NCBI GenBank assembly: GCA_016192455.1
Contig: JACPUC010000008.1
Location: 62,001 to 126,000, forward strand
DNA from: Candidatus Tectimicrobiota bacterium
GTDB lineage: Bacteria; JACPUC01
Direction of reading: 5' to 3'
Length of the DNA: 64,000 nt
Shown: one piece after another, positions 37,489 through 47,207 of the stretch
Numbering within the stretch: position 1 is the first letter of the stretch
Layout of the letters: every line of letters starts with the position of its first letter
The notes under the pieces: generated by a model
The model's database searches: none
Seen by the model: the letters and a program-made list of their open reading frames with translations, nothing else
Told to the model about the DNA's origin: nothing
Position numbers and translations under genes: made by a program

Positions 37489-38550
37489 CTAGGCGTAGCG
37501 GCCGTATTCGCGGCAGGCTTCGACCATCGCCAGGATATTCTCCCGCGGGGTCGGCGGCGGCACCTCGCAGCCGCACATGAGCACGAAGCCACGCGCGCTC
37601 TTCATCCCTTGCTCGATGGCGATCCTGCTGAGCTCCTTGACGCGCTCCGGGGTACCCTGCATCACCTCGGCGGTGTCGAGGTTGCCGGCCAGGATGTTGC
37701 GCTCGCCGAGCAGGCGCACGGCGGTCGGCAGACTCGTCTGCGAGCCGAGGCTCAGGAAGCCGGGCTTGCCGAAGTCCACCTTCGCCCAGCGCGGCAGGTT
37801 GAGGTTATGGTCCCCGCAGAGGTGGGCGGAGATGGAGCGCACCCCCATGGCCCGCACGGCGTCGGCGACCTGCTGCGCGTAGGGGAGCGAGAACTCCTCG
37901 AACTGTTCGCCGGAGATGAGCATGTTCGAGTCCATCGTTGATCCGAAGGCCGCCATCAGGCTGCCGGCGCCGAACTCCCCCGCGAAGAGCTCCACGACGC
38001 GGATGCAGAACTCGGCGATTTTCTTCAAGGCCGCGTGCACGAGGTCGGGGGTGTCGATGAGCCAGAGCATGAGGTTCTCCACCCCCATGGCGTTGCCGGC
38101 CACCGTGAACGGCGTGCCGCACTGCACCGAGATGCCGGTCTTGTTCTTGCGGCAGAGATGGGCAAACTCGAGCATCATCGGGATGGTGCCGGCGGTGCGA
38201 GGGTCCGGCACCTTTAGCCGCTCCACCTTCTCCAGCGTGTCGAGCCCCGGCTTCATGACCATCGGCGCCTGCAGGCGCTCATCCTCCGGGTTCATCACCT
38301 CGCCGCCGAACTCGCCGCCGCCGAACGAGGCAAAGCCGTAGTTGGGGCTGCCCTCGTACCCAAGCATCTGCGCCGCCCGCGCCTGGCCCGCGTAGCAGGC
38401 CTCGGCAGCGGTGTAGAAGTCCTTGATGCTGATGCCGGCCACCTTCGCCGCGAAGGCCATGGCGAAGGGGACGCACGGCACGCGGTCGAGCGGCTCGCCC
38501 AGAAAGAGGGCGCGCATACGCTGCCGGGATGTCAGACGATCTTCTGTCAT
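37489..38550 (-). CDS. UROD-fold corrinoid/methyl-transfer protein (MtaA/CmuA-like)
   Basis: 353 residues from the ATG at 38550 with GGAGAGAG upstream; the ORF extends to 38874 without conserved sequence. The TIM barrel of the uroporphyrinogen decarboxylase superfamily with the zinc-site triad of methyltransferases rather than of HemE: AHLCGDHNLNL (His and Cys) and a late CGCEVPPPTPRENI (Cys). MtaA/MtbA-type proteins move methyl groups between a corrinoid protein and a thiol carrier. It is divergent from a corrinoid-binding protein gene, supporting such a pairing. No MT1 (substrate:corrinoid) gene is adjacent. Confidence 0.85.
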   Translation of the reverse strand: MTEDRLTSRQRMRALFLGEPLDRVPCVPFAMAFAAKVAGISIKDFYTAAEACYAGQARAAQMLGYEGSPNYGFASFGGGEFGGEVMNPEDERLQAPMVMKPGLDTLEKVERLKVPDPRTAGTIPMMLEFAHLCRKNKTGISVQCGTPFTVAGNAMGVENLMLWLIDTPDLVHAALKKIAEFCIRVVELFAGEFGAGSLMAAFGSTMDSNMLISGEQFEEFSLPYAQQVADAVRAMGVRSISAHLCGDHNLNLPRWAKVDFGKPGFLSLGSQTSLPTAVRLLGERNILAGNLDTAEVMQGTPERVKELSRIAIEQGMKSARGFVLMCGCEVPPPTPRENILAMVEACREYGRYA

Positions 38551-38799
38551 ACGCTCTCTCCACCTCGGGGGGCCTCCCCTCGGCTCGAACCAGAATGGCT
38601 GGCACACTCCCTGATTGGTCCACTTGCTTCTCGCGCCAGCGCGCGCGCCCGGAAGACTCTGGAGCCGACGCCGTGGCGCGCGCCTGGACCGCTTGCCTTC
38701 ACCGTAGCGCATCGGCAGGCCAGAGGCAAGCGCTGGGCGCGAGCGCGAGGTCCTTCGGTCGAGGGAGCGCGGTGCCGCCGGCGGCGCCGCAGACAGCCC

Positions 38800-38835
38800 T
38801 TGCTTTTCAGAACCAGCGCGCCTATCATGTGATAG
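38800..38835 (+). promoter_or_regulatory. Sigma70-like promoter with overlapping 14-bp palindrome
   Basis: TTGCTT (38800-38805), a 17-base spacer and TATCAT (38823-38828) lie 45 bases before the corrinoid protein ATG. A perfect palindrome CTATCATGTGATAG (38822-38835) covers the -10, a typical repressor operator position. It lies in the 322-base gap between the divergent UROD-fold and corrinoid genes, which otherwise shows no gene. Confidence 0.5.
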
Positions 38836-38872
38836 TTCCGTCTCGCCCCGACCACGTTTTTGGAGACCCTCC

Positions 38873-39556
38873 ATGCAGTCGCCCTCCGCGCAGTCAATTG
38901 AAGAGATCTACAAGGAGATCGCCCAGCACGTCATCCTCGGTCGCCAGAAGGAGTGCTACGACTGCACCCAGCTTGTGATCTCCATGGGTGCGGCGCCCAA
39001 ATCCGTCATCAATGACGCCCTCATCGCGGGGATGACCGTGGTCGGGATCAAGTTCCGCGACGGTGAGTACTTCGTGCCCCAGGTGCTGCTGTCGGCGCGC
39101 GCCATGCAGCACGCCCTGGAGATCATCCGCCCCCTCCTGAAGGAGACCGACGCGGAAAAACCCGGCACCGTGGTCCTCGGCGTGGTGCGGGGCGACATCC
39201 ACAACATCGGCAAGAGCCTCGTCGGCATGATGACGGAGGGCGCCGGCTTCACGGTCGTGGACCTGGGCGTGAATGTTCCGGAGGAGAAGTTCGTGCGCGC
39301 CATCGAAGAGCACAAGCCGCAGGTCCTCGGCATGTCGGCGCTCATGACCACCACGATGATCGGCATGCGCGAGACCATCCAGGCGGTGACCGATGCCGGC
39401 TACCGCGAGCAGGTGCGCATCATGGTCGGCGGGGCGCCCGTGAACCAGCGCTTCGCGAACGAGATCGGCGCCGACGGCTACGCGCCCGACGCCACCGGCG
39501 CCGTGGGGCTGGTGAAGGGCTTCATGAAGGAGATGCGGGTGGGCGCGGTGTCGTAA
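38873..39556 (+). CDS. Corrinoid (B12)-binding methyl-carrier protein
   Basis: 227 residues from the ATG at 38873 (GGAG site 8 bases upstream). N-terminal helical cap domain of the MetH/MtaC type (residues 1 to about 95), then the Rossmann-like B12 domain with the base-off/His-on motif VRGDIHNIGKSL: Asp108, His110 and Gly113. MSALMTTTMI and MVGGAPVNQRFANEIGADGY follow. The protein carries a methyl group on cobalt and is paired with the divergent UROD-fold methyltransferase. The partner that loads the methyl group is not in the immediate neighbourhood. Confidence 0.92.
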   Translation: MQSPSAQSIEEIYKEIAQHVILGRQKECYDCTQLVISMGAAPKSVINDALIAGMTVVGIKFRDGEYFVPQVLLSARAMQHALEIIRPLLKETDAEKPGTVVLGVVRGDIHNIGKSLVGMMTEGAGFTVVDLGVNVPEEKFVRAIEEHKPQVLGMSALMTTTMIGMRETIQAVTDAGYREQVRIMVGGAPVNQRFANEIGADGYAPDATGAVGLVKGFMKEMRVGAVS

Positions 39557-41818: not shown

Positions 41819-41885
41819 CGTTGCGTCACACCAGGGCGCTGACGCATGTGACGCCTTGCAGTCAGGATTGCTCAGCGGCTTTCTG

Positions 41886-41992
41886 GTGGGGGACCCTTGC
41901 TCCCCCGCACCCCGCCCTCATCCGTTCCCTCTGCCATTGGGAGAGAGCCAGGGGTAGGGATGCGCGAGGGGAGGCGCTCATAGGTTCTCGCC
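41886..41992 (-). repeat. Dispersed two-hairpin intergenic repeat, copy D (inverted)
   Basis: Read on the minus strand: GCGAG...CCCCTCGCGCATCCC, a divergent centre, then GTGCGGGGGAGC...GTCCCCCACC. The order and the ends match copies A-C. It lies in the 320-base gap between the TPR gene and the selenoprotein gene, where nothing else is seen. Confidence 0.65.
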
Positions 41993-42138
41993 TGACCTTT
42001 CCCACCAAAACCAGAAACCAATGCTGGGAAGTAATTCCCTGCGACGTCGCGCGCGTCGCTCCGCACGGCTGCGCGGCGCCATGCCGCCGCATCCAAGCGT
42101 GACGTTCGCCGCCGGCGCCGCGTCGAGAGGAGCCTCTG

Positions 42139-42981
42139 ATGGAAATCGTGCGAATCAAGGAGCCCCACGAGTACCCGCCAAAGAGTCAACGGGTGTTTGA
42201 ACGCGTCAAGGATTGGTTCGGGGTCGATTTCGTCCCCAAGATGGATCGGGCGCAGAACCACTACCCCGAGTTCGGCGACGGGTTTCGGCGCGCCGCCAAA
42301 GTGACGATGCCCGATGGCGATCTCAGCCGCGGCCAGAAGGAGATGATCGCCGGGGCGGTGAGCGCCATCAATGTCTGCGAGTACTGAGGCCAGGCCCACA
42401 TCGCTGCCGGGATGCAGCAAGGCCTGGATGATGAGGACCTCTGGTTCGAGATGGCCTACACCGCCTCCGCCACCCATGGGCTCAACGCGGTCGCCGATGG
42501 CCTGCGCCTGCCCCTCGACTTCGCCGGCGCGGCGGGGACGGGCAACGGCGGGGCGCCGCCGTTCATCCCTCTGCTGAGCTACGAGGAGGCGTCCGGCAGC
42601 GTCCGGCGCATCTATGACGACATCAAGGCCTATTACGCCATGGATGATGTCCCGAACGTCTTCACGGCCATCGCCGACGATGCCACCTACCTGCGCGAAA
42701 CGTGGAGCTACGTGAAGGGGACGTTCACGACCAAAAAGCTGGAGCGCAGCTTCAAGGAGTGCCTCGCCTTCGCCGTCTCGCTCACCGGCAAGTCGGCCTA
42801 TGGCGCTGATTTCCACCTGCGGGAGATGCGGCGCCTGGGCGTGAGTCCGAAGGCGGTTCGCGAGGTCATCCAGGTGACGCAGCTCTTCAATGTAGCGACG
42901 AAGCTGGCGGACGCCCTGCACCTCGAGCCCGACCTGTCGCCCCAGGTCATCAAGGCGCAACGTCAAAAGACCGCGCCATGA
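42139..42981 (+). CDS. Selenocysteine-containing AhpD-like (carboxymuconolactone decarboxylase-fold) protein
   Basis: One 280-codon frame from the ATG at 42139, interrupted only by an in-frame TGA at 42385-42387. The TGA is codon 83, exactly the second Cys of the AhpD redox motif E-x11-C-x2-C-x3-H: Glu68, Cys80 (NVCEY), Sec83, His87 (GQAH). A SECIS-like hairpin follows at once (42390-42427). The second half repeats the fold with the motif decayed: Glu207, Ser219 in place of Cys, Gly222, His226 (SAYGADFH). So this is a tandem AhpD domain with a CxxU active site in copy one. AhpD-fold proteins act as peroxidases or thiol-disulphide partners. If TGA were a true stop, the reading would end one residue into the motif. 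Sec insertion machinery is not in the window. Confidence 0.85.
42385..42427 (+). promoter_or_regulatory. Bacterial SECIS-like element after in-frame UGA
   Basis: Starting 2 bases after the UGA: lower stem CCAGGCC (42390-42396) pairs perfectly with GGCCTGG (42421-42427); upper stem GCTGC (42403-42407) pairs with GCAGC (42414-42418); apical loop CGGGAT carries the G-G. The loop guanines lie 22-24 bases after the UGA, inside the spacing known for bacterial selenoprotein genes. It lies within the coding region, as SelB requires. Confidence 0.75.
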
Positions 42982-44652: not shown

Positions 44653-44856
44653 ATGGCCGCTGACGTCAAAACCGCCGCGATTCGCTGCAAGTCCTGCAAC
44701 TGCCGCTTCGACGTGCCCGACGGCCAAAAGGAGGTTGTCTGTCCCGAATGCGGCCAGGGCTGGAAGATGCGCTGGTTTCGACCCGGGGTGGGCATGATCA
44801 TCGCGCCGCTCAACTGGACGCAGTTCCAGAAGGAGGCGAGAAGGGTTCAGGAATGA
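44653..44856 (+). CDS. Zinc-ribbon protein coupled to AOR
   Basis: 67 residues from the ATG at 44653 with GGAGATGG upstream; a GTG at 44557 opens the frame earlier but adds a cysteine-poor stretch. Two zinc knuckles, RCKSCNCRFDV and VCPECGQGWKM, about 18 residues apart. The C terminus (VGMIIAPLNWTQFQKEARRVQE) is helical. Its TGA overlaps the AOR ATG (ATGA), so it is translated with AOR. It could deliver metal, help assemble the tungstopterin enzyme, or bind nucleic acid; none is shown. Confidence 0.7.
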   Translation: MAADVKTAAIRCKSCNCRFDVPDGQKEVVCPECGQGWKMRWFRPGVGMIIAPLNWTQFQKEARRVQE

Positions 44857-46736
44857 GCAACAAGATTGCATGGGTCAACTTGGCGACCCGTGAGGTGCGG
44901 ATAGAGGAGATTCCGGAGGAGTGGCGGCGGAAATACATCGGCGGGCGCGGCATCAATCAGTACCTCCTCTTCCAGCTCGTCGATAACTCCACCGAGCCGC
45001 TCGGGCCGGAAAACCCCCTCATCGTCGGCGCGGGCGCACTCTCCGGGGTGCTGGGCATCGCCAACTGCCGCGTCAACTTCTCCGCCAAGTCGCCCGAGAC
45101 AGGGCACTTGGGTGACTCCAGCATGGGGGGCTTCTTCGCCTCCGAGCTGCGCCAGGCGGGGTTCGACCATATCGTCTTCACGGAGCGCGCCGAAGAGCCC
45201 ATCTACGTCACCGTGCGGGACGGCGCCATCTGCTTCCACGCCGCGGCGCACCTCGCTGACACGAACGCCATCAGCATTCAGGACCGCATCAGGGAGGAGC
45301 TGGGAGACCCCCGGGTGCAGGTGGCGGCGATCGGCCCGGCAGGGCGCAACAAGGTGGTGTGGGCCTGCATCCTCAACGGCTCGAGCGACGCCGCCGGTCG
45401 CACCGGCATGGGCGCCGTCATGGGATCGAAGAACATCTGGGCCATCGCCGCCCGCGGCACCAAACCGCTGCAGGTGCACGACCCCGCCAAGCTCCTCGAA
45501 GTGACGAACCGGCAGTACACCCAGGTGACGACGACGAAAGGCTTCCTGGCCACCTCCGTGTATGGGACGCTCATCCGCCTCAACAACACCCGCACCCAGG
45601 GCTACGAGGGGGGCCACAACCACCAGTTCAACATGATGGAGGAGGGGGGGGAGGAACTCGACTCCGACATCTTCCTGGAGCGCTACGAGTCGGCCAAGAC
45701 CTCCTGCTTCAACTGCCCCACCCACTGCCGGCACCACTACGAGATCAAAGAGGGACCGTTTGCGGGGACGAAGGGCGGCTCCATGGAGTACTACGGCGCC
45801 GGCGGCTGGGGCAGCCAATGCGGCAGCGGCGACTGGAACACCATCCTGGTAGCCTTCGCGCGCTGCAACGAGTGGGGCCTCGACGTCGGCTCCGCCACGG
45901 CCTACACCGGCTGGCTGATGGAGCTGTGGGAGAAAGGCATCCTCACCCGCGAGCACACCGACCTCGACTTCACCTGGGGCAACCAGGAGGCCATCTTCGG
46001 CATCCTCGAGCAGACGACCTTCCGCAAGGGATTCGGCAACCTCGTTGCCGACGGCTGGATGAAGACGGCCGCGTACCTCGGCAACGACGCCGGCCGTTAC
46101 ATCGACCACGTCAAGGGGCTGACCATCGAGCCGGACGACGTGCGCGGTCACCGCGCCCAGGCCCTCGGGCTCGCCACCTCATCGCGCGGCGCCGATCACC
46201 TGCGCAGCCGCTACACCCTCGAGGAGTTCAGCCTGCCGCCCCAGGTCACGGCGAAGCTCACCGGCCGCGCCATCCCGGCCTCGGCGGAGAGCTACGAGGG
46301 GAAGGAGTGGGCCTGCTTCTGGACCGAATCCCTCTGCGCCGTCGCCGACGCCTTGGGGATTTGCAAGTTCCTCACCAAGTGGCTGAGCGCCGGGCTGCTG
46401 GGGTTCGACGAGTTCAGTGAGTGGCTGGGGGCCGCCAGTGGCCTGAAACTGACGGCGCAGGAAATCCTCGAGGTGGGCGAGCGCATCTACAACGTCGAGC
46501 GCCTCTTCCTCGTGCGCCACGGCTTCCGCCGCAAGGACGACGACGTGCCGCTGAAGTTCTACCACGCCTGGACGCACGGCCCGCGCGCCGGCACGCGGGT
46601 GGAGCCGGAGCACTTCCAGCCGCTCCTCGAGCGCTACTACGAGCTGCACGGCTGGGATAGCGACGGCGTGCCGACGGAGGCAACGCTGCAACGCCTGGGC
46701 ATCGACCTGCGCATCGAGGCGAGCGCAACGGTTTAA
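44853..46736 (+). CDS. Aldehyde:ferredoxin oxidoreductase (tungsten, bis-pterin)
   Basis: 627 residues from the ATG at 44853, overlapping the zinc-ribbon stop. The AOR family pattern is clear: IAWVNLATREVRIEEIPEEW, YIGGRGINQYLLF (domain 1, pterin), GALSGVLGIANCRVNFSAKSPETG, GPAGRNKVVWACILN, and the [4Fe-4S] ligands CFNCPTHC (Cys285, Cys288, Cys292) with the fourth at Cys504 (GICKFL), matching the Pyrococcus AOR spacing. Domain 2/3 catalytic segments follow. The enzyme oxidises an aldehyde to the acid with ferredoxin, or reduces the acid. Neighbouring ferredoxin and MoaD-like genes support a tungstopterin system. Confidence 0.93.
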   Translation: MSNKIAWVNLATREVRIEEIPEEWRRKYIGGRGINQYLLFQLVDNSTEPLGPENPLIVGAGALSGVLGIANCRVNFSAKSPETGHLGDSSMGGFFASELRQAGFDHIVFTERAEEPIYVTVRDGAICFHAAAHLADTNAISIQDRIREELGDPRVQVAAIGPAGRNKVVWACILNGSSDAAGRTGMGAVMGSKNIWAIAARGTKPLQVHDPAKLLEVTNRQYTQVTTTKGFLATSVYGTLIRLNNTRTQGYEGGHNHQFNMMEEGGEELDSDIFLERYESAKTSCFNCPTHCRHHYEIKEGPFAGTKGGSMEYYGAGGWGSQCGSGDWNTILVAFARCNEWGLDVGSATAYTGWLMELWEKGILTREHTDLDFTWGNQEAIFGILEQTTFRKGFGNLVADGWMKTAAYLGNDAGRYIDHVKGLTIEPDDVRGHRAQALGLATSSRGADHLRSRYTLEEFSLPPQVTAKLTGRAIPASAESYEGKEWACFWTESLCAVADALGICKFLTKWLSAGLLGFDEFSEWLGAASGLKLTAQEILEVGERIYNVERLFLVRHGFRRKDDDVPLKFYHAWTHGPRAGTRVEPEHFQPLLERYYELHGWDSDGVPTEATLQRLGIDLRIEASATV

Positions 46737-46778
46737 GACCACCTGGAAAGCCGGGGCACGAGGAAGGGCGCCGCTGCC

Positions 46779-47207
46779 ATGATGAAGCTCGTGGTGAAGA
46801 AGAACCACTGCACCGGCTGCATGCTCTGCGAGTCGGCCTGCTCGCTCTTCCACGAAGGCGTGGCGAACTTGGAGCGGGCGCGGGTGCAGATTGCCCGCGG
46901 CGAGGCCCTCAGCCACAACTACGGCATCAACATCTGCCGCCAGTGCAAGGTCTGCCCGCCCATCGACGCCTGCCCGGTGCGCGCCATCTCCCGCGACGGC
47001 GAGCACGGCGCCATCATCATCAACTACGACGCCTGCCTGCCGGGCTGCTCGATCTGCGTCGCGGCGTGCCACCTCGACGCCATCTTCCAGGCGGGCGGCG
47101 GGAAGCCGGTGGTCTGCGATCTCTGCGGCGGCGATCCGCAGTGCGTGAAGATGTGCGAGCCGCTCGCCCTCGGCATCACCGAGGTGAGGATGGCGGCGGC
47201 CAACTGA
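46779..47207 (+). CDS. Polyferredoxin-type 4Fe-4S protein (HycB/CooF-like)
   Basis: 142 residues (ATG 46779 or 46782). Four cysteine clusters: NHCTGCMLCESACS, NICRQCKVCPPIDACPV, DACLPGCSICVAACHLDAIF and CDLCGGDPQCVKMCEP, the standard set of electron-transfer subunits such as HycB, CooF and the AOR-partner ferredoxin. No signal peptide. It would carry electrons to or from AOR. 42 bases after the AOR gene, same operon. Confidence 0.9.
   Translation: MMKLVVKKNHCTGCMLCESACSLFHEGVANLERARVQIARGEALSHNYGINICRQCKVCPPIDACPVRAISRDGEHGAIIINYDACLPGCSICVAACHLDAIFQAGGGKPVVCDLCGGDPQCVKMCEPLALGITEVRMAAAN

What the first reader, a model, noticed from the sequence alone, without database searches (positions are those of the whole stretch)
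42139..42981. Selenocysteine in a tandem AhpD-like protein (CxxU motif)
An in-frame TGA at codon 83 falls exactly on the second Cys of the AhpD motif: Glu68-x11-Cys80-x2-Sec83-x3-His87. The reading frame is otherwise open for 280 codons with family-like sequence on both sides. The protein is two fused AhpD folds, the second with the motif decayed to Ser219/Gly222 while Glu207 and His226 stay in register. Known: Sec replaces catalytic Cys in bacterial thiol redox enzymes, and AhpD-like selenoproteins have been noted in selenoproteome surveys as far as I recall. Inference: an organism using Sec here should encode SelA, SelB, SelD and tRNA-Sec. Automatic gene callers would split this gene in two.
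Basis: partly seen in the sequence, partly recalled or inferred. Interest (0 to 1): 0.85.

Follow-up and report, generated by a model that had tools for sequence, protein, structure and literature searches.

The report
Selenocysteine-containing AhpD-like redox protein
This gene really reads an apparent stop codon as the rare amino acid selenocysteine at its catalytic site; it is a sound new member of an already known kind of bacterial redox selenoprotein, and automatic annotation would cut it in two.

Summary
An in-frame TGA (codon 83, 42385-42387) sits at the second cysteine position of the AhpD motif (E68-x11-C80-x2-U83-x3-H87) in an otherwise open 280-codon frame. The window's own genome encodes SelA, SelB, a SelD that itself carries an in-frame TGA, and tRNA-Sec. 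Forty distinct near-full-length copies, mostly from Methylomirabilota/Rokubacteria, all have TGA at exactly this codon; no cysteine version of this two-half protein was found. A hairpin 15 nt after the UGA fits the published bacterial SECIS model, is nearly invariant in nucleotides (41 of 41 rows against about 8 expected from synonymous shuffling) and shows a compensatory change in the window gene. Single-domain Cys relatives lack it. The predicted structure (pLDDT 92) has two AhpD-type halves. One correction: the second half's motif is not decayed; Ser219, Gly222 and His226 are invariant. AhpD/CMD selenoproteins with CxxU have been known since 2005, so this is a new subfamily member, not a new kind. 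The enzymatic role (selenoperoxidase or thiol-disulfide oxidoreductase) is inferred, and selenium in the protein itself could not be tested.

The parts
42139..42981 (+). Complete AhpD/CMD-like selenoprotein gene, 280 aa plus stop, read through the internal UGA
   Evidence: Open frame apart from one TGA; PF02627 over its cut-off; 40 distinct loci aligned end to end
42125..42132 (+). Possible ribosome-binding site GAGAGGAG upstream of the ATG
   Evidence: Read from sequence; inference
42340..42342 (+). Codon for Glu68, proton-relay glutamate equivalent
   Evidence: Invariant 41/41; register of AhpD Glu118
42376..42378 (+). Codon for Cys80, partner of Sec in the CxxU motif
   Evidence: Invariant 41/41
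42385..42387 (+). UGA codon 83 read as selenocysteine
   Evidence: TGA in all 41 homologue rows at this column
42397..42399 (+). Codon for His87, proton-relay histidine equivalent
   Evidence: Invariant 41/41
42403..42418 (+). SECIS apical hairpin GCUGC-CGGGAU-GCAGC; its loop begins 20 nt after the UGA
   Evidence: Folded; counterpart GCAGC-CGGGAA-GCUGC in 38 of 41 rows, window variant compensatory; synonymous constraint
42390..42427 (+). Possible lower SECIS stem (CCAGGCC / GGCCUGG) enclosing the apical hairpin, in the window copy
   Evidence: 7-bp helix in the MFE fold; not conserved in homologues, so uncertain
42592..42921 (+). Second AhpD-type half (about residues 152-261) with invariant S219-x2-G222-x3-H226 and no redox cysteines
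   Evidence: Predicted helices 153-260; matches single-domain AhpD 2ouw, rmsd 1.8 A over 133 residues; conservation

Best explanation
The gene encodes a real selenoprotein of the AhpD/carboxymuconolactone-decarboxylase superfamily. UGA-83 is decoded as Sec by SelB and Sec-tRNA-Sec, helped by a SECIS hairpin that starts 15 nt after the UGA (shown by conservation and genome content, not biochemically). Inferred chemistry: Sec83, activated by the Glu68/His87 proton relay, attacks a hydroperoxide (or another electrophile or disulfide). Cys80 then resolves the product into a Sec-Cys selenenylsulfide, which a cellular thiol donor reduces. The second half, without CxxC but with invariant Ser/Gly/His, probably completes the pseudo-twofold AhpD unit and shapes the substrate pocket. 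The confidence given is for the selenoprotein claim; for peroxide reduction as the actual reaction it is about 0.55.
For: Sec machinery in the same genome: SelB 366 bits, SelA 596 bits next to it, SelD 389 bits with its own in-frame TGA in 'KVAGUAAK', tRNA-Sec 75.5 bits with UCA anticodon. TGA at the same codon in 41/41 homologue rows = 40 distinct loci, plus two more from other groups. E68, C80, Y82, H87 and AAG 89-91 invariant. Hairpin present 41/41 vs 7.8 expected under synonymous shuffling. Ala89 uses GCA in 38/41 rows although GCA is 37 of 1639 other Ala codons in the family. The window hairpin carries a compensatory A-U to U-A swap. Cys homologues L120, L122, L123 lack the hairpin. Published SECIS limits (stem, loop, G position, spacing, MFE) are all met. 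AF2 model pLDDT 92.3, pTM 0.91; fold matches M. tuberculosis AhpD 1knc at Z 16.6 and other AhpDs. Proton-relay residues defined in PMC3141380 are in register.
Against: No protein-level evidence of Sec exists here. The enzymatic activity and reductant are unknown, and gene neighbourhoods are not conserved. By MFE alone the 56-nt region is not unusually stable against dinucleotide shuffles (z -0.73); the argument rests on conservation. Most homologues come from one phylum and are related, so the rows are not independent.
Confidence: 0.96

Rival explanations
1. Sequencing error or a recent nonsense mutation (pseudogene) that by chance hits the motif cysteine.
For: One internal stop in a single draft genome could be an error.
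Against: The same TGA is in 40 distinct loci from dozens of genomes, including a paralogue in this genome at 45% identity. Sequence downstream of the TGA stays constrained.
Confidence: 0.01
2. UGA is read as Cys, Trp or another residue through a code change or readthrough, without selenium.
For: A conserved in-frame TGA alone does not prove Sec.
Against: The genome has the full Sec apparatus, and the gene itself ends in TGA after the point where homologues end. The SECIS-like hairpin goes with UGA and is absent from Cys relatives.
Confidence: 0.02
3. The gene is a selenoprotein as described, but its main reaction is not peroxide reduction: for example thiol-dependent reductive dehalogenation as in the CMD-family debrominase Bmp8, or an adaptor/disulfide reductase role.
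For: Bmp8 (6ohj, 6ohi) is among the best fold matches, Z 16.7; haloacid dehalogenases appear among weak sequence and fold matches. No AhpC partner was seen beside the gene.
Against: The whole proton-relay set of AhpD is kept. Fold similarity does not tell the substrate.
Confidence: 0.35
4. The conserved coding sequence is on the other strand (the 364-aa minus-strand ORF 41872-42966).
For: A long overlapping ORF exists.
Against: It has no Pfam match. Homology and domain match follow the plus strand; such shadow ORFs are usual in GC-rich DNA.
Confidence: 0.01

Closest known systems
AhpD-like and CMD-like selenoproteins with CxxU (Sargasso Sea and GOS surveys, PMC1088965, PMC2398784; catalogued under TIGR01926 and PF02627 in PMC13188914)
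   Same: Same superfamily, same CxxU redox motif with Sec at the second Cys, bacterial SECIS directly downstream
   Different: This subfamily scores below the TIGR01926 cut-off (64 vs 81.8 bits), is about 260-280 aa long with a full second half, and is Sec in every member found
NF041238 AhpD_rel_CFYUT alkylhydroperoxidase-related (seleno)protein
   Same: AhpD-related, CxYU motif
   Different: 36.9 bits against a cut-off of 175; the match lies at profile positions 214-246 of 357, so the Sec half sits elsewhere in the chain
M. tuberculosis AhpD (1knc, 1gu9) and P. aeruginosa PA0269
   Same: Fold (1knc Z 16.6) and E-x11-C-x2-C/U-x3-H relay in register
   Different: Cys instead of Sec; in M. tuberculosis AhpD the active motif is near the C-terminus; tyrosine here at the His132 position, as in PA0269
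Putative two-domain gamma-CMD 2q0t from Burkholderia xenovorans
   Same: Best structural match over both halves, Z 19.4, 225 residues, rmsd 2.9 A
   Different: 14% identity; not described as a selenoprotein

Membership tests
Bacterial selenoprotein | In-frame UGA at a conserved redox position | tested here: met
   41/41 rows TGA at the second position of the CxxC motif
Bacterial selenoprotein | Sec machinery in the genome (SelA, SelB, SelD, tRNA-Sec) | tested here: met
Bacterial selenoprotein | bSECIS element: 4-16 bp upper stem, 3-9 nt loop, G in first two loop positions, 16-37 nt from UGA, MFE at or below -7.5 | tested here: met
   5 bp, 6 nt (CGGGAU), G at loop position 2, 20 nt, -7.9 kcal/mol for the local 24 nt (model)
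Bacterial selenoprotein | Selenium present in the expressed protein | not testable with these tools
   Needs mass spectrometry or 75Se labelling
AhpD/CMD superfamily (PF02627) | Profile score over the gathering cut-off | tested here: met
   74 bits vs 23
AhpD/CMD superfamily (PF02627) | All-helical AhpD fold | tested here: met
   AF2 pLDDT 92.3; many AhpD chains at Z 13-17
AhpD | E-x11-C-x2-C-x3-H proton relay | tested here: met
   With Sec for the second Cys; invariant in 41/41 rows
AhpD | Peroxidase or AhpC-reducing activity | not testable with these tools
TIGR01926 peroxidase-related enzyme | Score over curated cut-off 81.8 | tested here: not met
   64 bits
NF041238 AhpD_rel_CFYUT | Score over curated cut-off 175 | tested here: not met
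   36.9 bits

The most novel reading that the evidence does not exclude
A distinct subfamily of two-half AhpD selenoproteins, apparently Sec-only (no Cys form found), in which the second half keeps an invariant Ser/Gly/His pocket that works with the Sec site on a specific, still unknown electrophilic substrate in Methylomirabilota and relatives.
Probability: 0.25. Interest if true: 0.5.

Novelty: new member of a known kind. Interest (0 to 1): 0.4.

Why it matters
It adds a well-supported selenoprotein subfamily that standard gene callers truncate at UGA, with a nearly frozen SECIS hairpin that could serve as a search pattern. An apparently Sec-only redox enzyme in uncultured soil and groundwater bacteria is a good test case for why Sec is kept instead of Cys. 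It does not overturn anything: AhpD-like CxxU selenoproteins are already catalogued, and a Methylomirabilota genome with 63 predicted selenoproteins has been reported.

Tried and rejected
Rfam scan of the window found nothing; the tRNA-Sec lies on another contig. Thermodynamic stability of the region alone did not separate it from shuffles, so conservation and synonymous-shuffle tests were used instead. The inverted-repeat finder with default lengths found nothing because the stems are only 5-7 bp. A first protein alignment of L031 used the wrong frame and is void. Gene neighbourhoods of 19 relatives showed no conserved partner. The minus-strand ORF was considered and rejected. A plasmid search gave only distant CMD proteins. 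The organism was not identified: its nearest held relatives share only the domain.

Full report
Observation. The frame at 42139-42981 (+) is open for 280 codons except for TGA at codon 83; the stop is TGA at codon 281. Glu68, Cys80, the UGA at 83 and His87 form E-x11-C-x2-U-x3-H, the exact spacing of the AhpD relay Glu118, Cys130, Cys133, His137. A plausible ribosome-binding site precedes the ATG. An ORF caller sees only 42412-42981. Pfam CMD (PF02627) matches across the UGA, 74 bits against a cut-off of 23.

Sec machinery. The window lies in a 4.46 Mb, 31-contig genome, 88% complete. It encodes SelB (366 bits, C23:40655-42544) beside SelA (596 bits, C23:42751-44103), SelD (389 bits, C3) with its own in-frame TGA, and a tRNA-Sec (75.5 bits, C8; UCA anticodon by ARAGORN).

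Homologues. Two named Rokubacteria loci were found first, then a search of 95 genomes of their phylum gave matches in 43. Forty-one near-full-length rows (40 distinct loci, since L031 and L066 are the same place) were aligned, the window gene and its paralogue among them. TGA stands at the same column in all; E68, C80, Y82, H87 and Ala-Ala-Gly 89-91 are invariant. Two further full-length relatives from other groups, L117 and L118, also carry Sec there. No cysteine form of the two-half protein was seen in this search or among 386 genomes searched with the family profile. SelA is detected in 40 of the 43 genomes with a match (not in G079, G118 and G136), but it is common in the phylum at large, 84 of 95, so this is consistency and not an independent correlation.

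SECIS. Starting 15 nt after the UGA, the RNA forms GCUGC-CGGGAU-GCAGC in the window gene and GCAGC-CGGGAA-GCUGC in 38 of 41 rows, with a G-U variant in two. The window differs from the rest by a paired A-to-U and U-to-A change, one of which alters an amino acid (Leu to Gln): a compensatory change. It meets all four limits of the published bacterial SECIS model. The hairpin occurs in 41 of 41 rows against 7.8 expected when codons are drawn at random from each gene's own synonymous usage; rows are related, so these are not 41 independent tests. Codons 90-93 are identical wherever the residue is kept, and Ala89 is GCA in 38 rows, a codon rare elsewhere in the family (37 of 1639). Single-domain Cys relatives L120, L122 and L123 encode a similar peptide without the hairpin. 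Free energy alone does not single the region out.

Structure. The AlphaFold2 model (pLDDT 92.3, pTM 0.91) shows two helical AhpD-type halves, residues about 14-121 and 153-260. Best matches are a putative two-domain gamma-CMD (2q0t, Z 19.4, 225 residues), AhpD-type peroxidases, the debrominase Bmp8 and M. tuberculosis AhpD (Z about 16-17). These AhpD chains align over stretches of both halves, so a second half without a redox motif looks like the usual pseudo-twofold plan of the family rather than a novelty. In this family the second half keeps Ser219, Gly222 and His226 without exception and Glu207 in 34 of 41, so it is under selection and not decaying.

Function. Sec83 most likely is the attacking selenol and Cys80 the resolving thiol (inference from the AhpD relay, PMC3141380). 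Peroxide reduction is the default reading; reductive dehalogenation or other thiol chemistry is not excluded. Neighbouring genes are a c-type cytochrome weakly matching di-haem peroxidases, a TPR protein, an Rpb6/omega-type RNA polymerase subunit, and an aldehyde ferredoxin oxidoreductase with a ferredoxin; no partner is conserved next to the gene in relatives.

Known or new. AhpD-like CxxU selenoproteins were described in 2005 and 2008 and are listed in a 2026 catalogue. This protein falls below the cut-offs of the specific NCBIfam models TIGR01926 and NF041238. A recent groundwater MAG survey cited in the review reports selenoprotein-rich Methylomirabilota and may already contain it; that paper was not read. 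Verdict: real, well supported, new member of a known kind.

Noticed in passing
G000:C31:111540-112337 (L027): A paralogue at 45% identity in the same genome, also a selenoprotein (CRYU) with the family SECIS hairpin GCAGC-CGGGAA-GCUGC.
   Followed up: yes
L090 (G000:C6:8860-9105) and L093 (G000:C3:18187-18411): Two more CMD/AhpD-type genes in the same genome with TGA in the motif (CPFU and CAYU), so this genome has at least four such candidate selenoproteins.
   Followed up: partly
L018 (G000:C3:190907-191827): SelD itself carries an in-frame TGA near its start (KVAGUAAKLGPG), i.e. a Sec-containing selenophosphate synthetase.
   Followed up: partly
L030 (JACPCF010000009.1), same place as L043: A Rokubacteria homologue with a short in-frame deletion in the second half that removes Ser219 and its flank, and an N-terminus that does not align.
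   Followed up: no
L119 (G370), L074, L079, L080: A more distant two-half AhpD group, also with Sec (CxYUIDSHxAA), about 22-29% identical to the window protein where measured.
   Followed up: no
window 37489-39556: A URO-D family gene and a corrinoid-binding protein, divergently oriented, suggesting corrinoid-dependent methyl transfer.
   Followed up: no
window 44748-47207: Aldehyde ferredoxin oxidoreductase followed by a 4Fe-4S ferredoxin.
   Followed up: no
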